From: Clostridia bacterium | GTDB taxonomy: Bacteria; Bacillota; Clostridia; UBA1212 | Length of the DNA: 64,000 nt | Direction: 5' to 3' | Assembly (NCBI GenBank): GCA_017444825.1 | Contig: JAFSVU010000050.1 | Span: 1 to 64,000 of the forward strand | Shown: positions 3,784 through 62,605 of the stretch, piece after piece | Numbering within the stretch: position 1 is the stretch's first letter | How the letters are laid out: the number at the start of each line of letters is the position of its first letter | Notes under the pieces: generated by a model | Told to the model about the DNA's origin: nothing | Seen by the model: only the letters and a program-made list of their open reading frames with translations | The model's database searches: none | Translations under genes and position numbers: made by a program

Positions 3784-5733
3784 TCAGCCCGCCGTAGCAT
3801 TCTGGCTTTCAAACAGCTTCAGTGCCGCGTCATCCGGGAGAGGCTTGGAGAACAGGTAACCCTGAAGGAACTCAACTCCCGCCTTTTCCAGCTTTTTACG
3901 GTGTTCCGGCGTCTCCACTCCCTCAACCACCACTTTCATCTCAAGATCGTGGAACATCATTATTGAATGGTGGAGGAGCTTATTGGTTTTTTCATTGGAG
4001 TCTGCTCCCCAGAGGATGGATTTATCGATCTTTATCAGGTCGAAGGGGAACTCCATCACGTACGCATTGTTCGCGTAGCCCGTGCCGTAGTCATCCAGCG
4101 CAAACGAGAAGCCCCTGCTCTTCAGGTCCTCTATGACCTTTTCCATGGTGAACCTTGACGTCGCCAATGCGGACTCCGTGATCTCAAGGCAGAACTGCTC
4201 GGGTCTCACAGCGTACTTTTTCATGATACGGTCCCAACGGTCCGGCAGCATTCCGTCAACAGCCTGTACGGCGGAAAGGTTTACCTCCACGTACGAAAGG
4301 CCCGTGTCTTTGTGCTCGTCGAGGAATTTGCAGACGTTTTCAAACACGAAGTCCCCGAGATCTCTCATAAGGCCGTGCTTTTCGGCAAGGGGTATAAAGT
4401 ATTCCGGCGACACCATGCCAAGCTCCGGATCGTTCAACCGCACCAATGCCTCCGCCGTGTGGATCCGGTTGAGTGACGTGTCCTGGATGGGCTGGTAGTA
4501 AACCAAAAGCTTTTTATCCTTGATGGCGCCCCGAAGAGCCATCTCCACTTTAGCCTCGTACTGCTGGTTTGCGGGCTCGTCGATGTAGACCACCTGCGCT
4601 CCGGCCTGAAGGGGCTCAAAAGGAGCGTCCATGACCATTGTAAGTTGCTCCACATTGGCGAGTTTTTCAGGCAGCCTGCAGATAAGTATCTCGGAAGAAA
4701 GCTGAATGCTGCCGTTTCCGTACTCCCAGGGCTCTACGAATCTGTTCTTGAGGAGTTTCACGAAGGCATCCGTCTGTCCTTCCCGCGGTCTGTAAGCGAC
4801 TATGGCGTATCGCTCGGGGCCGTACTGATACATGGTCCACCGGGACGGGATCTGTTTCAAGAGATAGTTTCCGATATCGCAATTGATCTGCTCCACAGTC
4901 TCGCCGCCGATAGCTACCGCCAGCGATTGGATGGAGGGGATCTTGATCAGTATCACGTCCGCATCAAGGCCCATGGCAAATATCTGACCCGCGTCATGTA
5001 GGAGCGCATATCGGTTGTAAAACCCGGTCACGGGAGAGCGGACGGCTTCTTCATTGTCGATGGTAAGCGACGCGCCGAGAAGTCCTATCGCCTGGAAGAA
5101 TAGAGCCCATTTGAGCTGAGGATAGAACACCTGCACCGCCACAGGGGCAAGGCTGAGAATCGAAAAAGCGTAATAAGCAAACTTTTCCTTTCTCTTAAGA
5201 GCCTTTCTGTAGTAAAGTACCATCGCCATGCCCAGCACGACGTAATAGGCTGTAAATACGTAAAAAATGTCCACAAGGGGGCCACCCACGTATTCGGTGC
5301 CCTGATAGTAGTAGACAAGGCGTCTTGCAGGCTCGATAAGCATCCAGACAAGCATTACAGCCTCGGGCAGCACCATGACACCAAGCACCCACTTTTTCAC
5401 CCTCAGCCTGAGCTTTAGTATTGAGCCCAGATAACATGCGTAAAGGAAGGGCATCATGTTTCTCAGGATCAGGAACACCATCATCGACAGATCCGCCACC
5501 ACGTAATTAAACCGCTCGGGCGCATTCAACATGTAAATGCCGGGGAGATCCGCCAATGAGGCAAAAATGATCGCCAGGCCGATCAAAAGAAACCACTTGT
5601 TTTTTTCCTGTTTGAGGTCTTTGCGCTTTGCGACTTCAAGAATGATCAGCAACGTTACGCACAGTGCGCAAAGGTTGAATTGCCAATAATATAATGACAT
5701 CATTGCCTCCGAATTAATGATCTTACTATACAT
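3784..5733 (-). CDS. Membrane EAL phosphodiesterase with degenerate GGDEF domain
   Basis: The 649-residue protein has about seven N-terminal membrane helices (residues 10-220), a GGDEF-like domain, and a C-terminal EAL domain that hydrolyses cyclic-di-GMP. The GGDEF motif is replaced by GPERY, so no cyclase activity is expected; such domains often bind GTP as regulators. The EAL domain keeps the catalytic and metal-binding blocks: EALVRL, VNLSAVQ, EITES, DDYGTGYANN, IKIDKS, VEGVET and QGYLFSKPLP. Its start overlaps the stop of the upstream cyclase by one base (TGATG), so translation is coupled. It probably removes the signal made by the two neighbouring cyclases. Confidence 0.9.
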   Translation of the reverse strand: MYSKIINSEAMMSLYYWQFNLCALCVTLLIILEVAKRKDLKQEKNKWFLLIGLAIIFASLADLPGIYMLNAPERFNYVVADLSMMVFLILRNMMPFLYACYLGSILKLRLRVKKWVLGVMVLPEAVMLVWMLIEPARRLVYYYQGTEYVGGPLVDIFYVFTAYYVVLGMAMVLYYRKALKRKEKFAYYAFSILSLAPVAVQVFYPQLKWALFFQAIGLLGASLTIDNEEAVRSPVTGFYNRYALLHDAGQIFAMGLDADVILIKIPSIQSLAVAIGGETVEQINCDIGNYLLKQIPSRWTMYQYGPERYAIVAYRPREGQTDAFVKLLKNRFVEPWEYGNGSIQLSSEILICRLPEKLANVEQLTMVMDAPFEPLQAGAQVVYIDEPANQQYEAKVEMALRGAIKDKKLLVYYQPIQDTSLNRIHTAEALVRLNDPELGMVSPEYFIPLAEKHGLMRDLGDFVFENVCKFLDEHKDTGLSYVEVNLSAVQAVDGMLPDRWDRIMKKYAVRPEQFCLEITESALATSRFTMEKVIEDLKSRGFSFALDDYGTGYANNAYVMEFPFDLIKIDKSILWGADSNEKTNKLLHHSIMMFHDLEMKVVVEGVETPEHRKKLEKAGVEFLQGYLFSKPLPDDAALKLFESQNATAG

Positions 5734-47451: not shown

Positions 47452-47535
47452 TTAACCTAATTCAGGTGCATAACCTAAATAAATATCATAATCTCCCGTA
47501 AGAGTCACTTCCGCAGCAGTTACGTAATTAGTCAT
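47452..47535 (-). CDS. 27-residue ORF resembling the end of the upstream tail protein
   Basis: The ATG lies within the last codons of the upstream gene (overlap 8 bases). The peptide reads like a second copy of that protein's C-terminus: EVTLTGDYDIYLGY here against EVALTGDYTISLVY there. It could be a truncated exchange product, a separately made peptide, or chance survival of a duplicated end. No strong ribosome site is seen, but translation could be coupled to the upstream gene. Confidence 0.35.
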   Translation of the reverse strand: MTNYVTAAEVTLTGDYDIYLGYAPELG

Positions 47536-48334
47536 TGCTACCGCCTTGAAAATGATACACCAGAGAAATGGTATAATCTCCAGTCAACGCGACTTCTATA
47601 GACGTCGAATAGTCCGACCCTCCGGAAATTACCTCATCATTGTTTATTTTTATTCCATTGGTTGGAATTATTATAGAAGAACCAGGATTATTTAAATCTA
47701 TGAGTGAGTCATATGACCCCCAAACATAAACTTTTGTTTTGTTAGAATAGGCGGTCAATCCAGTCAATATGCCACTGGTATTAACATACGAATCATAATC
47801 ATTGTCGCTTATAGGTTGAGCATCAAATTTTATCTTTGTGTACGTTCCATTACCACTAAGTGTATCATAAGCGCTTATATTCCCACTATACCCACTCGCC
47901 GCCTTTGTAAAGCTCACTCCTGCCGACAAAGCACTATCTCTATAGCCTGCCGCTTTGGCTTTTACCTTTAAGGTATGATTTCCTGCTGATACATCAGACC
48001 AACCAGATAGGGTTGTGAGGTCTACAGAGAGTTGAGAGGATGAGGGGGTTAGTGTCCCATTTGCTTCGAGCCACGAAATAAATGTAACATTATCTATATC
48101 ATCGCCATCTATAAATATAACAGTTTTGTATGCATTATTACTCCAATAATTCATTTCTTCATAAACCTGAGTTGAATTATAGTTAATCTGTGGTTGAACT
48201 CCGTTTAAAGTAAATGAAGAATAATTTGTATTGTTTGAAACAAAGTTAACATTATAAGTAGTGACACCAAACGGAAGATTGAGAAAATCCATTCCCACCC
48301 AAGTATATCCCGTAATATCTGAGATGTTTGGCAT
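47528..48334 (-). CDS. Tail-fibre-like protein with beta-rich repeats
   Basis: The 268-residue protein is rich in Asn, Ser, Thr, Tyr and Gly and looks wholly beta. The first ~75 residues are a unique domain, residues about 75-140 hold a GNHTLKVKAKAAGYRDS module also found in the tail protein at 51930-52739, and the C-terminus ends with an EVALTGDYTISLVY strand pair. It is more AT-rich than the tail genes upstream. AAGGAGG precedes the ATG. Role is likely adsorption or a fibre accessory. Not matched to a named family. Confidence 0.65.
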   Translation of the reverse strand: MPNISDITGYTWVGMDFLNLPFGVTTYNVNFVSNNTNYSSFTLNGVQPQINYNSTQVYEEMNYWSNNAYKTVIFIDGDDIDNVTFISWLEANGTLTPSSSQLSVDLTTLSGWSDVSAGNHTLKVKAKAAGYRDSALSAGVSFTKAASGYSGNISAYDTLSGNGTYTKIKFDAQPISDNDYDSYVNTSGILTGLTAYSNKTKVYVWGSYDSLIDLNNPGSSIIIPTNGIKINNDEVISGGSDYSTSIEVALTGDYTISLVYHFQGGSND

Positions 48335-48336
48335 AG

Positions 48337-49050
48337 TTAAATCGCCTCCTTAAATAGATACCTCTTTTTATATATTTTGTTTTGTTTTATATATTTTCCA
48401 ATAGAAGCAAAGTCAATTCCTATTGTTTTTGAAATATCTTTTCTGCAATCATATAAAGTCTCTGTATTGTCCTTTAGGTCTATTAGAATTGTTGGCTTAG
48501 CGCTGGGGTTTTTACCTCCAATTCTTTGTTCCCTTAATTTCTCCTTACCTTCATCGGTGAGATGTTTTCCTCTATGAGATTCTTTCATTTTCTCGATAGT
48601 TTTAGGCGTATGTTTGACACCTTTGTTCCAAGTATATCCTCGTTTTTTGCCTGTTAAGCCTTCAGAAATGTGTTTACTATGCTCTTTGCTTCTAACCTTG
48701 CCTTTTAAAGCGGAGCTAATTTTTTTCTTAGTGCTTTCACTTAAACCATATGCAACACCGCCACCACTTTCTATATTATAACCAAATTGTCTGTCAGTAG
48801 TATTATAATAATTTATATAATACCTTTCTTTTTCATTGGCTTCTTGCGGTGTTAAATTACTTTCTAATATGAGGTGTTCTATATTTTCCCAACCATATTT
48901 ACAAATTGCTTTATAAACAAGATTTTGTCTTTTATAGTTTTTCCCATTGCGGCCAAATCTAAAACGTGCTGTGTTTTTAGTTTGCCCTATATATCTTTTG
49001 TTGTTTGGGAATAAATGGCAATAAACCAAACAATTATTTGTTACACTCAT
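48337..49050 (-). CDS. GIY-YIG homing-type endonuclease
   Basis: The 237-residue protein starts with a GIY-YIG nuclease domain (VYCHLFPNNKRYIGQT near 10-25, catalytic Arg in ARFRFGRNG, Glu in ANEKERYYI), then two or more NUMOD3-type DNA-binding motifs (LSESTKKKIS, KGKVRSKEHSKHIS, KMKESHRGKH, LTDEGKEKL). The layout is that of freestanding phage homing endonucleases of the SegA/I-TevI kind. It is AT-rich, has a strong AAAAGGAGG site and lies between the DGR reverse transcriptase and a tail gene, as if inserted there. Confidence 0.9.
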   Translation of the reverse strand: MSVTNNCLVYCHLFPNNKRYIGQTKNTARFRFGRNGKNYKRQNLVYKAICKYGWENIEHLILESNLTPQEANEKERYYINYYNTTDRQFGYNIESGGGVAYGLSESTKKKISSALKGKVRSKEHSKHISEGLTGKKRGYTWNKGVKHTPKTIEKMKESHRGKHLTDEGKEKLREQRIGGKNPSAKPTILIDLKDNTETLYDCRKDISKTIGIDFASIGKYIKQNKIYKKRYLFKEAI

Positions 49051-49065
49051 AATCTACACCTCCTT

Positions 49066-49188
49066 TTATTTTTTGTTTTTGGCAGAAAAAAATTCTGCCC
49101 TGCATTGTTTGTTCCATTTCTCGCACGGAGCTGTGCATTTAAACCGTTTCTTGCAGTTTTGGCAGAGCAGTTCTATGCGTTTTCTCAT
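49066..49188 (-). CDS. Candidate 40-residue cysteine-rich protein overlapping the RT gene end
   Basis: An ATG at 49188, inside the last 50 bases of the reverse transcriptase gene in another frame, opens a frame ending at 49066. The peptide MRKRIELLCQNCKKRF continues to give five cysteines with spacing C-x2-C-x5-C-x3-C-x6-C, which could bind zinc, and a basic C-terminus. Only a weak GTGAG site is seen, so coupling to the upstream gene would be needed. No known function. Confidence 0.4.
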   Translation of the reverse strand: MRKRIELLCQNCKKRFKCTAPCEKWNKQCRAEFFSAKNKK

Positions 49189-50194
49189 ATTTACTCACTA
49201 TTCGGCGCAACAGGCCGTTCTTTGCGGTGTTTCGTATCTCGCTGATATAATACGAATACCCTTGTTTTATTTGCGCCAACCATCCCGTGTAGGATAACAA
49301 ACTTCTTGCTTGGCTGACGCAAATGTGTTTCTTTTTCCGGATTTTAGCAACCCGCTTGTTTATCGCTCTGAAAGTCCGTTGCCGAAGCCGCACCTCTTTC
49401 CCGAAGCGAAACCCAAGGAAGTCTATTGGCTTATCTTGCGGCTGATGCACTTGTGCTTTCTCTTTTAATCTCAATCCTTTCTCTTCGAGTTTCCGAGAGA
49501 CGTTATACATTGCGTTTAGAAGCTTTCTTTTGTTATTTCCCATCAGCACCATATCGTCCACATATCGAATATAGAACGGTACTTTAAGTTCTTCCTTGAT
49601 ATAGTGGTCAACATCTTCCAAGAACCAATTTGAGAACCACTGGCTATAATATGACCCGATTGGAAGTTCGTCGCAAGCACCCACTACAAAAGCGCAGAGG
49701 TTGCAAAATCTTTCGTCTTGCACTTTACGGCGTATAAACCCAAGCAGTTTCTCGGCTTTCACGGACGGATAAAACTTGCAGATATCGAGTTTAATGTAAT
49801 ACTTGTACTTCTTGTAATTTCTCGCCGTGACTTTCTTGCCATAGCTTATGCCTCTTTTGTCAACGTTCCCAACGCAGTATTCATACATTGATTTTCGTAT
49901 GTAGGGCTTAAGCGTTTCGGTCACGATATAGTCAAGGATTCTGTTCGGGAAAAACGGGCTTATCGTTAAAAGCCTCTTTTTGCCTCTTTCCTTAATCGTT
50001 CTATGTTTTACGGGGCGTTGTTTAAACTCTCCGCTTCGAAGCATTTCAAGTATTTGGTTTGCACAGTTATCAATATCGTTCAGCGTGTCGATTACTTCTT
50101 TTCTCTTTTTCTTCCCTTTAGCCGCAAGGATTATTATCTCTTTAATGCGTTCTATATCGAGAAGGTTTTGATATACGTTTCTAACGCTTTTCAT
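49139..50194 (-). CDS. DGR reverse transcriptase
   Basis: The 351-residue protein is a reverse transcriptase of the diversity-generating retroelement type. Fingers motifs include LDICKFYPSV (136-145), the DGR-typical PIGSYYSQWFSN with S-Q (178-189), the catalytic YVDD (211-214) and a thumb segment with DFLGFRFG. It lacks the X/En domains of group II intron enzymes and the msr/msd context of retrons. It copies the TR transcript with errors at adenines. GGAGAAC lies before the ATG. TR and VR are directly upstream. Confidence 0.95.
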   Translation of the reverse strand: MKSVRNVYQNLLDIERIKEIIILAAKGKKKRKEVIDTLNDIDNCANQILEMLRSGEFKQRPVKHRTIKERGKKRLLTISPFFPNRILDYIVTETLKPYIRKSMYEYCVGNVDKRGISYGKKVTARNYKKYKYYIKLDICKFYPSVKAEKLLGFIRRKVQDERFCNLCAFVVGACDELPIGSYYSQWFSNWFLEDVDHYIKEELKVPFYIRYVDDMVLMGNNKRKLLNAMYNVSRKLEEKGLRLKEKAQVHQPQDKPIDFLGFRFGKEVRLRQRTFRAINKRVAKIRKKKHICVSQARSLLSYTGWLAQIKQGYSYYISEIRNTAKNGLLRRIVSKYEKTHRTALPKLQETV

Positions 50195-50357
50195 AAAGGT
50201 TCTCCTTTGCTGACACTTCAGGGCTTTCGTTTCCTACTAACCCCGCCTTTGACGTGTCTCTTTTCTCCTGCAGAGCGAGTCTGCTCGGACGGAACGAAAC
50301 GGCTCGATATATCGTGAGCTTACACTCGGATATATAATCTAAACAATTCAGCAAATT
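50195..50357 (-). other. Spacer between TR and reverse transcriptase
   Basis: About 160 bases without a gene. In model DGRs the equivalent stretch of the template RNA helps prime and position cDNA synthesis. It contains short inverted repeats around 50285-50335, where ATATAT arms surround GAGC/GCTC pairing. No Avd-like frame is present. Confidence 0.5.
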
Positions 50358-50451
50358 CGGACGCCGTTCGAAGTCGACCAACTGTTGTTCGTGTTGCAGT
50401 TGAACGCACCGTTGTTCGCATTGGCATTCCCCACGTTCGAGTTGACGGGGC
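50358..50451 (-). repeat. DGR template repeat (TR)
   Basis: The 94-base core has 25 adenines on the sense strand and 11 AAY codons in the VR frame, the design that allows change without stop codons. It differs from the VR in the target gene at 12 positions, all adenines here. Downstream (sense) the initiation-of-homing region reads GTCCGAATTTGC, against GTCCGCCTTTGC in both variable repeats, the usual IMH*/IMH difference. Confidence 0.95.
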
Positions 50452-50541
50452 AGTCCGTTTTCGCACCGTTGATTTTTAAATACTTGAAACGCTTCGGGCG
50501 TGTCTTGCCCGCCCTACGCTGACAAAGGTCGATAGCAAAGG

Positions 50542-50635
50542 CGGACGCCGTACGATGTCGACCAACTGTGGTCCGGGCCGCAGCGGAACGCACCGACGAG
50601 CGCAAGGGCATCCCCCACGTCCGAGCGGAGGGGGC
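50542..50635 (-). repeat. Orphan variable repeat between TR and VR
   Basis: The core differs from the TR at 20 positions, 18 of them TR adenines, so it has received mutagenic homing. Upstream flank is identical to that of the TR; downstream flank, including IMH and the stop-codon region, is identical to that of the expressed VR. It lies after the target stop codon, in a +1 frame, and has no start codon of its own. Confidence 0.9.
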
Positions 50636-50697
50636 AGTCCGTTTTCGCACCGTTGATTTTTAAATACTTGAAACGCTTCGGGCGTGTCTTGCCCGCC

Positions 50698-51933
50698 CTA
50701 CGCTGACAAAGGTCGATAGCAAAGGCGGACGCCGTACGAAGACGACCAACTGTTGTTCGTGCTGCAGTAGAACGCACCGTCGCTCGCATAGGCAGCCCCC
50801 ACGCGCGAGTAGACGGGGCGATTGCCTGAGCCATAATAGTATTGGTCACAATAATAAGTATTGTAGCTGGTATTCGACACCACCGCACTCGGATAATTAA
50901 AGAACGGGTTGTTCGAGTCATAGCCGAGTTTTTGGATTTCGTTGCTTGAAGTTGGTTGTGCGTACCCTGCGGAAATGTAATCTGCAGGAACGGGGTCGGA
51001 TGCTGAACCAAGCGAAGCGTATTTTGTCGGAGCGGTACACAATTTCCAAGTTCCACTTGACCCCATTATGCCATCAATCCAGCCGCCTTGTGTTGTCCAA
51101 TAAATGCCCATCTCGTCATACGTCCAAGCGGTACCTGTGTTGGTGTTTACGGTCATCTTAAAGCAGATTATCAAATCTTGCCATAATTTCTGCATTTGCC
51201 AGTCAAACAATTGATACCCAGTTCCTTTGGCCGTTGCATAGCTTCTGCCCGTTCCAACAGTCATAGTCGCCGCTGATGTCGCCGCAGTAGATACACAGCC
51301 CGAAGAAGAAGTGTTCCAATACTTTCCTATGAGAATGTACTCCATAACCGCACCGTTTTCATCAACAAAACAAGAATACGGCTCATAGCTGTTGTCTCTC
51401 TTGGAATTAGCAATTGTGAACGAGGTAATCTGTCCGCTCGAAGTTGCTTCGACCTTGCGGTACATAGTCGGTATTTTGATAAATACGTCCGTTCCCTTTG
51501 TCACTTCTTCAATACCAAGGTTTGCAGGAGTAAAGCCTGAATCCTTGTTAAACGTTACGGACGAAGGCGAGGACGAACCGAGATTTGAAACGGTACATTT
51601 GCATTCTGCACCAAAGATAGCATAAACGGTTAAATCAGCCGCCGGAGTATAAGGGAATGATATTGCAGTTGTGCCACCGCTTGTTGTTGACCACCCTTTG
51701 AACACATAACCGGTTTTTGTCGCAATTATCGGGTTTGAATTTATTGCTCCGCCTGCTTCTACCGATACAATAGCTATATTGTCCGTGCCATCGTTAAAGG
51801 TTACGTTGTAGCCACCTGTTATTCCACCGCCACCTTCAGTAAATGAAATATACTGGCCAATATTATCAGCGTCCGGTACTTTAATTGTGTCTACATCCGA
51901 ATATATAGTTGAACCAAGTTTAATATTACTCAT
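50698..51933 (-). CDS. DGR target: tail-fibre protein with variable C-terminus
   Basis: The 411-residue protein has a short start, an InlB-type repeat (about 42-110, GYVFKGWSTTSGGT and LTVYAIF), a linker, and a C-terminal domain (about 150-411) that looks like the C-type-lectin fold of DGR targets. VR covers about 372-403 and the fixed end is GVRLCYRPLSA. In tailed phages such proteins bind the host surface, so VR change would alter receptor choice. It starts at 51933, overlapping the previous gene by four bases (ATGA). Confidence 0.92.
   Translation of the reverse strand: MSNIKLGSTIYSDVDTIKVPDADNIGQYISFTEGGGGITGGYNVTFNDGTDNIAIVSVEAGGAINSNPIIATKTGYVFKGWSTTSGGTTAISFPYTPAADLTVYAIFGAECKCTVSNLGSSSPSSVTFNKDSGFTPANLGIEEVTKGTDVFIKIPTMYRKVEATSSGQITSFTIANSKRDNSYEPYSCFVDENGAVMEYILIGKYWNTSSSGCVSTAATSAATMTVGTGRSYATAKGTGYQLFDWQMQKLWQDLIICFKMTVNTNTGTAWTYDEMGIYWTTQGGWIDGIMGSSGTWKLCTAPTKYASLGSASDPVPADYISAGYAQPTSSNEIQKLGYDSNNPFFNYPSAVVSNTSYNTYYCDQYYYGSGNRPVYSRVGAAYASDGAFYCSTNNSWSSSYGVRLCYRPLSA
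50726..50819 (-). repeat. DGR variable repeat (VR) in target gene
   Basis: It encodes about residues 372-403 of the 411-residue target protein. All 12 differences from TR in the 94-base core occur at TR adenines (to T, G or C). It ends with GTCCGCCTTTGC and the conserved protein end CYRPLSA. Confidence 0.95.
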
Positions 51934-54432: not shown

Positions 54433-55884
54433 TTACGATGCTATGATTATGTCAATACGTGCTTCTGCAAATTCGTACCTGGATGTGATCTTCGGCGCAA
54501 GGTAATACTGATCGTAAGTATCCCCAGCGTCTATGCTGCCGACGATCTCGGTGTACTCTACGTTTGCCACACGAGCAGTAATCTCTGCCGCAATCGCCTG
54601 GAATGAAAGCCCCTGATTTATCGTCAAATGCTCAGCCTTCGCCAAGAAGATATCCCTCACCGTTGTGATGTAGTCCGCAGGGAGCGTACCCGACGTTGTG
54701 AGCGTGATCTTCACGAAGGTATAAATTATGTTCGGCAAGTAATACTTGACGCTCATCGTTCTGTTGTCGGTCTGGACCGTAATAATATGGTCGCCGTCAA
54801 TCGTAATGCCCGCCGGGACGCTGTTGTAGATCGCCCTTCCGAGATCATCGTCAGTCGCATCCTCGACGTCAATATAAGGCGTCACGCTGTGAGCCGGGTA
54901 TGTGTGCCCACCTTCCGTCACAGAGCTGTTTGTGTTGTTTACGTAAACAAAGCATCCATTCACGCCGTCAACCTTCATGATGGATGATCTGATCGCCTCG
55001 TCAGAAGCCGCACCATGCACAAATGTGCCTTGGTTGTATCTTGCCCTGAGCTCTTCGTCTGTTTCTTCGTAATTGCCTTTTTGCGCTGTCTCGCAATAAT
55101 ATGTTGCGTAAGACGGAGGGAATGAAGCGATATCCACATCTGTGCCTGCATACTCGTTCGGCCCGTTCTCGTTGTCAGCAAAGGTCGCAACACCCGTGAA
55201 CGAAACGCCCACCATGTTGTTGTATGCGAAGATGTGGTTCGTGTCTTTCGCCATCACGATCTCAACACCATCGGTGCCATTTACCAAATACTTGATAAGG
55301 CTTCTCGTCGCTGACGGAAGAAGGTGAAGCTGAGAGTATAGAGCGTTGTTATCCGTTGCCGTTGTTCCGGACGCAGTAAACGAAACCGAAATAACATTAT
55401 CAATTGATAGTGAAACTGTTGAAGAAGCCGCCGCACCTTCGCATGAAAGCTTCACGGCCCTGGCGAAGTTTGGCGAGATGATAACAGATTCAGTCGCCGT
55501 CAGGTATCTCACGGAATTATCCTGAGAGATCGCCGCCGCCATGCCCTCGGTGATCTCTGTGCTGAGAGCGGATGCAGGCGTGATATCTATCTTGTAGATT
55601 GAAGGCTTTGCGCTCTTCCGGACCACGCCGCCGACACTGCACGCCGCATCGAGCGAAGCGCCTGTTGCCGTCTCAACATAAGCGGAATAGTACACGCTTT
55701 CGGCAATGTCCCAAAGCCTCGCCATTCTGTCGGCAAACGTAGCGACGATAACATTGAACACGCCCTGCGGATTTGCTGACACGTCCACGTTAAGGTTTGT
55801 GAGGAGCTCAGCTCGTATCTCATCGTATATCTCATCAAAGCGCTTCTTAATGAAGCCGCCGCTTGTTATTCCATAGTCGCTCAT
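54433..55884 (-). CDS. Baseplate J-like protein
   Basis: The 483-residue product matches the baseplate J/gp47 family of contractile tails, which forms the wedge. The N-terminal region (GGFIKKRFDEIYDEI, DRMARLWDIAESVYYSAY) and the central EETDEELRARYNQG block are characteristic. It overlaps the gp25-like gene by four bases, the standard order. Confidence 0.9.
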   Translation of the reverse strand: MSDYGITSGGFIKKRFDEIYDEIRAELLTNLNVDVSANPQGVFNVIVATFADRMARLWDIAESVYYSAYVETATGASLDAACSVGGVVRKSAKPSIYKIDITPASALSTEITEGMAAAISQDNSVRYLTATESVIISPNFARAVKLSCEGAAASSTVSLSIDNVISVSFTASGTTATDNNALYSQLHLLPSATRSLIKYLVNGTDGVEIVMAKDTNHIFAYNNMVGVSFTGVATFADNENGPNEYAGTDVDIASFPPSYATYYCETAQKGNYEETDEELRARYNQGTFVHGAASDEAIRSSIMKVDGVNGCFVYVNNTNSSVTEGGHTYPAHSVTPYIDVEDATDDDLGRAIYNSVPAGITIDGDHIITVQTDNRTMSVKYYLPNIIYTFVKITLTTSGTLPADYITTVRDIFLAKAEHLTINQGLSFQAIAAEITARVANVEYTEIVGSIDAGDTYDQYYLAPKITSRYEFAEARIDIIIAS

Positions 55885-58546: not shown

Positions 58547-60409
58547 TTAGCCTCCGTAATACAATGCGATCTTAAGCTGATCCGAAACATCCTCAGCGGA
58601 ATCTTCCATCGCCTGAGCGGCGTTGAGCTGATTCTGCCTGTCTGCGCCGTTGAATGTATAATCGTTGTTCATCGTGATCGTGATCGTGCTCGTAGAGCCG
58701 CCGTTCAAGATCTTGTCATCGTTTTCCGTGATCTTGTCTGCGATATCGTTCACGTCGTCCTTGAGAAGCCCGAAATAACGCAGTATGGCCTCGAAGAAGT
58801 CTCTTATCCTCTCGATCGCCTTGCTGTGCTCGCTGATCGTGTCAAGCCATTTCATAATATTCTCAAGAGCGTCGCCAAGCCTTTCCTTCAGCCATGCACC
58901 AATCGCAGAGAAGCCGGTCTCCAAAATTGTCGCAAATTCGAGCATTGTGTCCGCATACTTCTCCCAAAGCTTCAGATATTTCTCAAGCGCCAGGTTAAAT
59001 ATATGCGACGTCAGCTCCCCGAATTTGTTGAAGAAGTCGAGGAAGGGCTTTCCGATCGTGTTGATTATAGTGTTTATAACCTTTAATGCAAACGTGATGG
59101 ATTTCGCTATTGTTGAGACAAGCGGAACAATTGACTTGAGAAAATCAATCGTTGTGATAGCCGAAGTCTTAAGCACACTACCGAAGATATCTTTGACATT
59201 GTTCCAAAGCTCCAAGAGAGCCTGGCCGAGAGGAGCCAGCTCCTCCTTTATGTCGTTGAGACTACCAAGAAGCGATTGTCTTGCGGCCTCCGGGTCTTGT
59301 CCCCTTTCTCTGTAAGCCTCTTCCGTGAGGCTGTCCTCACCCCTTGCAAACGCCACGATATCAGCGACAGTTTTTATCGCAAGGTATATGACAGCAAGAA
59401 TCCAGCTTATCTTTCCGAGCATTCCGAGAATACTTCCTGACGAAGCGCCCGCCCCGCCTGCGGCACTCGCCGCACCGCCTGAGCCAAACGCCGACGTAAT
59501 CGACGGAAGCACCTGCTTAAGCTTCGAGATGAATTCAACACCCTTGCTGAAAAGCGTAATGCTCGCCGCAATCGCCGCCACCTTTCCAAACAAGGAAGGA
59601 AGGCCACCGAGCGCATTTATCACATCTCGCACCTTGTTAAGCATCGGCCCGAGCTTATCGCCAAACTGCTTGATCTTAAGAGCGATATCGTTGACGATCT
59701 TCTGACCGTCCGTAGATATCCAAAGGAAGAATCTCTCTTTGACGTAGGCAAGAGAATCGGTAATCGTAAGAGAGATTCTTGAGTATCTATCCTCAATGTC
59801 ATCAAGGTTGTTGTAGATAGCCCTGGTGAATTCCTTCAGTGTGATATTGTTTTGCATAGCCATCGCTCTGATGGCCTGATCTGTCGTGTTGAGCGTTTTT
59901 GCGAGATAGTTTACAAGCTCCGGAGCCGCCGCAAGCATTTGCGACAAATTTGTGAGCCGGCCGTTCGCAAAATTCTGCGAGAACTGCTCTACGAGGCCGC
60001 CGGCTTCATCTCTTCCGAGCCCTGCTCCACGGAACACCTTTCCGAGCGTCTCCGCAAGGCTTGTAGCGTCGTCAAGAGAAAGCGTCCATGCGTTTGTGTC
60101 CTGGACCATCTGCTTCACAGCGGAAGCCATAGAATCATACGACGTGTTGCTGTTCTGCGCAGCCGTCATGATCTTCTCTTGCAGAGCGGCCATGTCCTCC
60201 ATATAATCAACCGCATACGCAAGCTGATTATTTATCTGCATGTAATGCTCTACTTGCTTTCTCGCCTGGTTAAACAGCGCACCGACGGCTACTGCCCCAA
60301 GTATCTTTTTTGCGGAGGAGGCAAACTTGTTCACGGACGCCATGGCCTGATCGTACGATTTATTGTCTACGTTGTAGCCGATCGCAATGGCAATGTCTCT
60401 TATCGTCAT
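58547..60409 (-). CDS. Tail tape measure protein
   Basis: The 620-residue protein is helical with two hydrophobic stretches (about 290-325 and 330-350) and a central region of Leu/Ile-rich helices, the pattern of tape measure proteins. The N-terminus MTIRDIAIAIGYNVDN is typical for the class. At about 1.5 angstrom per residue the tail would be near 90 nm, a short myovirus tail. Its ATG overlaps the end of the frameshifted chaperone (stop at 60406). Confidence 0.85.
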   Translation of the reverse strand: MTIRDIAIAIGYNVDNKSYDQAMASVNKFASSAKKILGAVAVGALFNQARKQVEHYMQINNQLAYAVDYMEDMAALQEKIMTAAQNSNTSYDSMASAVKQMVQDTNAWTLSLDDATSLAETLGKVFRGAGLGRDEAGGLVEQFSQNFANGRLTNLSQMLAAAPELVNYLAKTLNTTDQAIRAMAMQNNITLKEFTRAIYNNLDDIEDRYSRISLTITDSLAYVKERFFLWISTDGQKIVNDIALKIKQFGDKLGPMLNKVRDVINALGGLPSLFGKVAAIAASITLFSKGVEFISKLKQVLPSITSAFGSGGAASAAGGAGASSGSILGMLGKISWILAVIYLAIKTVADIVAFARGEDSLTEEAYRERGQDPEAARQSLLGSLNDIKEELAPLGQALLELWNNVKDIFGSVLKTSAITTIDFLKSIVPLVSTIAKSITFALKVINTIINTIGKPFLDFFNKFGELTSHIFNLALEKYLKLWEKYADTMLEFATILETGFSAIGAWLKERLGDALENIMKWLDTISEHSKAIERIRDFFEAILRYFGLLKDDVNDIADKITENDDKILNGGSTSTITITMNNDYTFNGADRQNQLNAAQAMEDSAEDVSDQLKIALYYGG

Positions 60410-61558: not shown

Positions 61559-62605
61559 TTATTCCGAAAGTGTTCCGACGATCTCAACCACATGCACGGC
61601 ACCGGACAGTCTTGCCGAGAAGCTGACGCCGTTAAGTGTACGTGTTGCTCTTGTCGCAGAAGATATCGTTGTGATATCCGGAATCGTTACCGTGAATCCG
61701 GGAACTGATGTGCCGTTCTCAAGGAAGTCGGTTCCGTCTATGCAGCCATCAGACTGTCCCTTTGTAAGCACCTTGCGGATAGCGGATTCAATCGCCGTAA
61801 GGCCTGCCGCATTGTAAGGCACTTTGACGGTCGAAGCGAGAAGGCTGTAAACAGATTCCTGTATAGCACTTGCAAGATAGTCGCAATATCTCATTACGTC
61901 TATCCACTCGCCGGATACTGTAGCTCCATCGTAAGTTACGGTTCTGCCGCCTATGAGAGCATAGCAGTTTACGCCAGCCGCCTTGATGGCGTCAATCTGT
62001 GTTTTTGTGTAAGAGCCTGCCGTTATGTTGGTCAGCGTCTTATATGCCCAGGTCTCTGTTCCGGGCTCATAGGTAAAGCATTTCGCCATGTAAGCTACAT
62101 GGATGAACGCATTCTTTGTGCCGTTCGTGTCATAGGCAATACCGAATGTGTAAAGGTTCGTTGTCCCAACCGGATTGAGTGTCGCAGCATTGTCAGCTAC
62201 CGAGAAACCAAACAGCTTATGGTTTGTCTCGCACCATGTCGATATGGTCGAATAGTTTGACGTTGCAACACCTACGGTCACAAGTCCGTACCAGCCGCCC
62301 TCGTTGAGAGCGTCGTCGAGCAGAGCTGTGAGCGCTGTCGATGTCTCGCTGTTGTAAGGTACTACGTACACGCCGCCAGCACCGTTGCTGAACGCCATAT
62401 CCGCCGCCTTGTAAACGTCCTCTGTTGCCACCCAGCCTGCGTCAAGAATCTGATCGAGGCTCGTATAGTAAGCAAAAGCCGCCGCTGTTGCCGCCTGTGC
62501 CGCCGGTTTTGTTCCGAGAATCAGCATTCTTTCAAAAGTCGTATTCTCTGTTGCTGCCTGACTTATTGATATTTGCACTCTCACAATGTTATCCAATACA
62601 GCCAT
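61559..62605 (-). CDS. Tail sheath protein (DUF3383-like)
   Basis: The 348-residue product matches the DUF3383 sheath family: the start VRVQISISQAATENTTFERMLILG (shown in short, V-x-V-x-I-S), the FGFSVADN segment, and the C-terminal beta strands that tie sheath subunits together (RTLNGVSFSARLSGAVHVVEI). Presence of a sheath makes this a contractile-tailed phage. Confidence 0.82.
   Translation of the reverse strand: MAVLDNIVRVQISISQAATENTTFERMLILGTKPAAQAATAAAFAYYTSLDQILDAGWVATEDVYKAADMAFSNGAGGVYVVPYNSETSTALTALLDDALNEGGWYGLVTVGVATSNYSTISTWCETNHKLFGFSVADNAATLNPVGTTNLYTFGIAYDTNGTKNAFIHVAYMAKCFTYEPGTETWAYKTLTNITAGSYTKTQIDAIKAAGVNCYALIGGRTVTYDGATVSGEWIDVMRYCDYLASAIQESVYSLLASTVKVPYNAAGLTAIESAIRKVLTKGQSDGCIDGTDFLENGTSVPGFTVTIPDITTISSATRATRTLNGVSFSARLSGAVHVVEIVGTLSE

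What the first reader, a model, noticed from the sequence alone, without database searches (positions are those of the whole stretch)
50542..50635. Third, orphan variable repeat outside any gene
Between TR and VR lies another copy changed at 18 TR adenines (plus two non-adenine changes). Thus it received mutagenic homing, yet it is after the target stop codon and in another frame. Its upstream flank is that of TR and its downstream flank, with IMH, is that of VR. That is the product expected from unequal crossing-over between VR and TR, followed by homing into the new copy. Non-coding VRs are not, to my knowledge, a usual DGR part.
Basis: partly seen in the sequence, partly recalled or inferred. 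Interest (0 to 1): 0.9.

Follow-up and report, generated by a model that had tools for sequence, protein, structure and literature searches.

The report
Non-coding variable repeat in phage DGR
A prophage's mutation-making retroelement carries, besides its normal template and its target gene, a stray third copy of the repeat that is peppered with the element's signature adenine changes but lies outside any gene; it looks like a by-product of the repeat unit duplicating itself, and it may show what the machinery writes when no protein is under selection.

Summary
On the minus strand the order is target gene (VR 50819-50718), orphan copy (50635-50534), TR (50451-50350), RT (50194-49139). VR, orphan and TR repeat with a period of exactly 184 nt. 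Over the reported 94 nt the orphan differs from TR at 18 adenines and 2 other sites; over 102 nt, 20 of 22 differences are at TR adenines (P=2e-13). It starts 62 nt after the target stop, in another frame, without a start codon. Its 104-nt upstream flank is identical to TR's; its IMH and 82-nt downstream flank are VR's. That fits a tandem duplication by recombination between VR and TR. Homing into the copy afterwards is likely but unproven: an old VR allele captured by the crossover would look the same. One-step duplication by a mutagenic cDNA is disfavoured, because all 26 adenines of the upstream flank are untouched. A survey of 136 distinct related DGRs found extra non-coding copies between target and TR in five: single orphan VRs here, in L006 and in L319, a seven-copy array in L087, and two extra intact TRs in L271. 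Non-coding VRs are mentioned in passing in the literature. Verdict: a real, rare, recurrent variant of a known system, probably a by-product.

The parts
50698..51933 (-). DGR target gene, 411 aa; C-terminal variable region; Flg_new repeat domain at residues 42-105
   Evidence: AlphaFold model (mean pLDDT 59.5) has as best PDB matches the DGR variable protein TaqVP, 5vf4
50718..50819 (-). Coding variable repeat (VR), 102 nt, with VR-type IMH (GTCCGCCTTTGCT)
   Evidence: 14 of 14 differences from TR at adenines
50636..50717 (-). Spacer copy 1 (82 nt) between VR and orphan; contains the target stop and a short GC-rich inverted repeat (CGGGC-N7-GCCCG)
   Evidence: identical to spacer copy 2
50534..50635 (-). 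Orphan (non-coding) variable repeat, 102 nt: TR-type 5' flank, adenine-mutated body, VR-type IMH and 3' flank
   Evidence: 20 of 22 differences from TR at adenines; frame +1 relative to VR; no start codon in that frame after the target stop
50452..50533 (-). Spacer copy 2 (82 nt) between orphan and TR
   Evidence: identical to spacer copy 1, all 25 adenines intact
50350..50451 (-). Template repeat (TR), 102 nt, AAC-rich, with TR-type IMH* (GTCCGAATTTGCT)
   Evidence: VR differs from it only at adenines
50195..50349 (-). TR-RT spacer; the segment GGGGTTAGTAGG (about 50231-50245) recurs in similar form before the RT in L004, L006 and L087. The orphan lacks this 3' context.
   Evidence: sequence reading
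49139..50194 (-). DGR reverse transcriptase, 351 aa, intact, motifs IGSYYSQW and YVDD
   Evidence: Pfam RVT_1 1.6e-15; PHROG 1423 reverse transcriptase 1.1e-64; profile of related RTs best matches PDB 8ub7-8ube at 1.5e-44

Best explanation
The third copy is a non-coding variable repeat made by tandem duplication of the DGR's own VR-spacer-TR unit. A crossover or replication slippage between VR and TR, which are homologous, in the same orientation and only about 80 nt apart, inserted one extra 184-nt unit between them. The new unit therefore begins with TR's 5' flank and ends with VR's IMH and 3' flank. Because it carries what the machinery is known to need (homology to TR, IMH, a following inverted repeat), it most likely then served as an extra landing site for mutagenised cDNA. 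This rewrote its adenines without any coding consequence. It is most likely a neutral, unstable by-product, removable by recombination between the two identical spacers, rather than a working part. Shown: duplication structure, adenine-specific change, lack of coding, intact RT and TR. Inferred: order of events, homing after duplication, neutrality.
For: Exact 184-nt register, hybrid flanks and identical 82-nt spacers. Adenine bias P=2e-13. Orphan and VR carry different changes. In BPP-1, IMH plus hairpin plus at least 8 nt of homology suffice to make even a foreign gene a homing target, and sequence upstream of VR is dispensable (PMC3240598). Recurrence: L319 has a non-coding A-mutated copy between target and TR (18/26 A, 8/90 non-A); L006 has another (26/28 A, 8/87 non-A). 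Both carry VR-type IMH letters. L006's changed-adenine fraction exceeds that of all 127 coding VRs surveyed (binomial P=1e-4), which argues for mutagenesis without coding selection. The target-TR gap in this clade is short (median 114 nt), which favours tandem slippage. The L087 array and the extra L271 TRs show that such units multiply.
Against: Homing after duplication is not required for the window copy: a crossover in the 8-nt identical stretch GCCCCGTC would carry over a whole old VR allele. The orphan's changed fraction (20/27) lies within the range of coding VRs (16% are as high). The mutated tract starts where VR's homology starts although the orphan's own homology to TR runs 104 nt further upstream; a defined cDNA end, as reported for BPP-1 (PMC12875486), would also explain this. 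No read data or second genome with the copy was available. The inverted repeat after VR and orphan is only 5 bp.
Confidence: 0.6

Rival explanations
1. Capture without homing: the crossover lay in the 5' end of the repeat, so the new unit received an entire older VR allele with its adenine changes. The coding VR was later rewritten from TR; the orphan has been passive ever since, a fossil VR.
For: Mutated tract begins where VR/TR homology begins, and 26 flank adenines with TR-type sequence are untouched. One of the two non-adenine changes lies at the putative 5' junction (50630), and the other (ACT>ACA) is synonymous in the VR frame. Changed fraction is normal for a coding VR.
Against: Needs a crossover in an 8-nt identity, whereas today's VR and TR share longer stretches (up to 19 nt) downstream. 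The orphan has the cis parts needed to be homed. The more heavily mutated L006 orphan does not look like a captured functional allele.
Confidence: 0.3
2. One-step origin: a long mutagenic cDNA copied from TR, spacer and VR end integrated at IMH and created duplication and mutations together.
For: Would give the same order of elements.
Against: None of the 26 adenines in the 104-nt upstream flank is changed; at the orphan's own rate (18/25) the chance for the nearest 17 alone is about 4e-10.
Confidence: 0.02
3. Assembly artefact: VR variants or neighbouring copies mis-joined in a metagenome assembly.
For: The contig comes from a 56-contig draft genome. The maximal exact repeat is about 109 nt, hard for short reads. 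The sister phage contig G196:C11 (59,187 nt, ends overlap by exactly 55 nt) breaks right after the last variable adenine.
Against: The orphan's 5' junction (TR flank joined to a body that is neither VR nor TR) shares only about 5 nt with VR's upstream flank and cannot be built from VR and TR k-mers. Independent non-coding copies exist in other assemblies.
Confidence: 0.05
4. Coding role: the orphan is translated by frameshifting from the target (alternative frame open 51056-50514) as a second variable tail.
For: The alternative frame is open over the orphan in the VR-specific reading; L319 shows a similar overlap.
Against: No start codon after the target stop; no lectin scaffold before the orphan. 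The unit differs by 2 nt in the sister phage (182 versus 184), where the alternative frame closes in the spacer. In L006 the frame opens only after the target stop.
Confidence: 0.03

Closest known systems
Bordetella phage BPP-1 DGR
   Same: RT, TR, adenine-specific VR changes, IMH/IMH*, VR at the C-terminus of a tail-associated target
   Different: BPP-1 has one coding VR and an avd gene; here there is an extra non-coding VR unit, and no Avd domain was found in the six neighbouring ORFs scanned
Multi-VR DGRs (DiGReF PMC3521204; MetaCSST PMC6642488)
   Same: One TR serving several VRs. DiGReF notes one VR of Pelodictyon phaeoclathratiforme outside any identifiable coding region; in MetaCSST 7.4% of VRs do not overlap an ORF
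   Different: Those extra VRs mostly sit in paralogous target genes made by gene duplication; here only a VR-spacer-TR unit was duplicated
L319 (IMGVR_UViG_3300029906_000187) and L006 (G191:C2) phage-type DGRs
   Same: Non-coding adenine-mutated copy between target stop and TR, VR-type IMH letters
   Different: Spacers diverged, no exact unit; unrelated repeat sequences
L087/L125 phage DGR array
   Same: Extra non-coding repeat units between target and TR/RT
   Different: Seven units; the VR matches the second unit from the RT; the array is identical in two contigs whose VR differs only at three template adenines

Membership tests
Diversity-generating retroelement (whole locus) | Reverse transcriptase of the DGR type | tested here: met
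   RVT_1; profile of related RTs matches 8ub7-8ube at 1.5e-44; intact YVDD and SQW motifs
Diversity-generating retroelement (whole locus) | TR/VR pair with changes confined to template adenines | tested here: met
   14/14 at adenines, P=3e-10
Diversity-generating retroelement (whole locus) | Target VR at the C-terminus, in a C-type-lectin-like fold | tested here: inconclusive
   VR is at the C-terminus (met). Best structural match is TaqVP 5vf4 (E 3e-4), but residues 355-399, including most of the VR, have pLDDT below 50
Diversity-generating retroelement (whole locus) | Accessory Avd protein | tested here: inconclusive
   No Avd family in the six nearby ORFs scanned with Pfam; not all small ORFs were scanned
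Variable repeat, strict sense (orphan copy) | Adenine-specific difference from TR | tested here: met
   20/22 differences at adenines, P=2e-13
Variable repeat, strict sense (orphan copy) | VR-type IMH at the 3' end | tested here: met
   CC as in VR, not AA as in TR; 82-nt downstream flank identical to VR's
Variable repeat, strict sense (orphan copy) | Hairpin/cruciform just downstream of VR | tested here: inconclusive
   Same short inverted repeat after VR and orphan by sequence reading (5-bp arms, below the 6-nt search minimum); fold not stronger than shuffles
Variable repeat, strict sense (orphan copy) | Lies within a target coding sequence | tested here: not met
   62 nt after the target stop, frame +1, no start codon in that frame
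Variable repeat, strict sense (orphan copy) | Receives cDNA (changes in a population) | not testable with these tools
   No reads and no second genome with the copy

The most novel reading that the evidence does not exclude
The space between target and TR is an evolving cassette zone: unit duplication makes non-coding variable repeats and extra templates that are kept and used, either as a reserve of ready-made variants swapped into the target by recombination or as alternative templates. In L087 the coding VR matches a template that is not the RT-proximal one.
Probability: 0.12. Interest if true: 0.75.

Novelty: new variant of a known kind. Interest (0 to 1): 0.47.

Why it matters
If the copy is homed, it is a natural selection-free record of what a phage DGR writes, next to a coding VR written from the same template. 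Its untouched upstream adenines would then mark where the mutagenic tract ends. It also shows how DGRs may gain extra VRs and templates without gene duplication, by slippage of the short VR-spacer-TR unit, and that VR counts in surveys should not assume every VR is coding. None of this changes the basic picture of DGRs.

Tried and rejected
Close relatives carrying the third unit: not found. Only one near relative turned up (97% RT, G196), whose contig breaks inside the repeat. I considered that break as evidence for a collapsed third copy; it fits, but VR heterogeneity explains it equally well, since many DGR contigs in IMG/VR also start a few hundred nt upstream of the RT, so I do not use it. 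Viral scans with the window RT, the target protein and the spacer found no close viral relative. Purifying-selection signature in the orphan (adenines outside AAY codons): uninformative for the window (1/3), suggestive for L006 (7/7 versus 45% in coding VRs, but 20 of 73 coding VRs also reach 70%). Dating the duplication by the spacers: too short and polarity unknown. L312 repeats are a 66-nt tandem repeat and were left out of the DGR count; L112's second VR is coding; L014, L246 and L248 second copies lie near locus ends; L189/L265 copies lie outside the target-TR interval. None was counted.

Full report
Observation. The DGR lies on the minus strand of a contractile-tail prophage (tail sheath 61559-62605, tape measure 58547-60409, baseplate protein 54433-55884). 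Three copies of a repeat stand in register, 184 nt apart: VR at the 3' end of the 411-aa target, the orphan, and TR. The orphan differs from TR at 22 of 102 positions, 20 of them TR adenines (P=2e-13); VR at 14, all adenines (P=3e-10). The orphan starts 62 nt after the stop codon, in frame +1, without a start codon in that frame.

Structure. The 104 nt upstream of the orphan core are identical to TR's upstream flank. Its 3' end has VR's IMH letters (CC against AA in TR), and the following 82 nt are identical to those after VR. A unit made of TR's left side and VR's right side is what recombination or slippage between VR and TR gives. The 26 adenines of the identical upstream flank are all intact, so the duplication was most likely made by copying DNA, not by a mutagenic cDNA.

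Coding status. The mechanical ORF 50514-51056 covers the orphan in the VR frame but overlaps the target and has no lectin scaffold before the orphan. In the sister phage the VR-TR period is 182 nt, and this alternative frame closes in the spacer. I treat the copy as non-coding.

Homing or capture. In BPP-1 the needs of a recipient are IMH, a following hairpin and at least 8 nt of homology to the cDNA, not a gene (PMC3240598). The orphan has the IMH and the homology, and a weak inverted repeat. Homing into it is therefore expected but not proven. If the crossover lay 5' of the first variable adenine, the orphan would simply be a captured old VR allele. The abrupt start of the mutated tract fits capture, and also fits a cDNA with a defined end, as reported for BPP-1 (PMC12875486).

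Sister phage. G196:C11 (59,187 nt, RT 97% identical, ends overlapping by 55 nt) has intact RT, a TR differing at 3 positions, and a VR with 17/17 changes at adenines. Its contig breaks exactly after the last variable adenine of VR. This would follow from a third copy collapsed by the assembler or from VR heterogeneity, so it cannot be used either way. The next relative (L004, 60% RT) has only VR and TR.

Survey. I fetched RT relatives from viral contigs, Clostridia-class genomes and named phages. TR/VR pairs were detected by an adenine-wildcard scan. Of 136 distinct DGRs, 127 have VR directly upstream of TR, with a median gap of 114 nt. Five carry further copies between target and TR. The window, L006 and L319 have one A-mutated orphan each. 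L087 (also L124, L125) has seven units. L271 has two additional TR-like units with adenines intact (2/22 and 1/22 changed). The L006 orphan is changed at 26/28 adenines, more than any of the 127 coding VRs. This supports mutagenesis of a non-coding copy free of selection, at least there. In L319 and L006 the orphan's 5' flank resembles TR's only weakly (4/300 and 10/500 shuffles as good), so the shared topology is suggestive, not shown.

L087. The contigs L124 and L125 are identical over the 8.68 kb shared except at three sites, all in the coding VR and all at adenines of the unit at 4568-4674; the seven-unit array itself is identical (0 of 1328). The VR matches that unit, the second from the RT, with no non-adenine mismatch. 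So a DGR can hold several template-like units and use one that is not nearest to the RT. This is outside the given finding but may be the more interesting architecture.

Known or new. DiGReF (PMC3521204) noted one VR outside an identifiable gene; MetaCSST (PMC6642488) found 92.6% of VRs overlapping ORFs. I found no description of a tandem VR-spacer-TR duplication or of unit arrays in the open-access papers searched; subscription papers are largely not covered. I class the finding as a new variant of a known kind: real, rare (about 4% of surveyed DGRs if arrays and extra TRs are counted), recurrent, and probably without function of its own.

Noticed in passing
L087 3566-4855 (also L124, L125): Seven non-coding TR/VR-like units, period about 150-178 nt, between target and RT. 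The coding VR is templated by the second unit from the RT; the array is static across two contigs while VR changes at three template adenines. Units with VR-type IMH letters (at 3805, 4266) have lost more adenines than the others.
   Followed up: partly
L271 2432-2838: Three tandem TR-like units (147-nt period) with adenines nearly intact; the VR matches the RT-proximal one without non-adenine mismatch.
   Followed up: partly
L319 2593-2708; L006 1049-1163: Further non-coding adenine-mutated copies between target stop and TR.
   Followed up: yes
48337-49050: GIY-YIG/NUMOD3 homing-endonuclease-like gene directly downstream of the DGR RT; no matching DNA at this place in the sister phage (L003), so probably a recent insertion.
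   Followed up: partly
47528-48334: 268-aa protein whose counterpart in the sister phage (L003, downstream of RT) is 409 aa with a different C-terminus ending in WWLRSPYD...RYGVAPCFCI, like a second tail-surface protein.
   Followed up: no
L003/L040 (G196:C11): Sister phage contig of 59,187 nt whose ends overlap by 55 nt, so probably a circular phage form; it breaks at the VR.
   Followed up: yes
L189 3101-3365 (same as L265 1101-1365): Degenerate TR-like copies (17-29 of 77 non-adenine mismatches) in short open frames upstream of TR, possibly remnants of a lost target.
   Followed up: no
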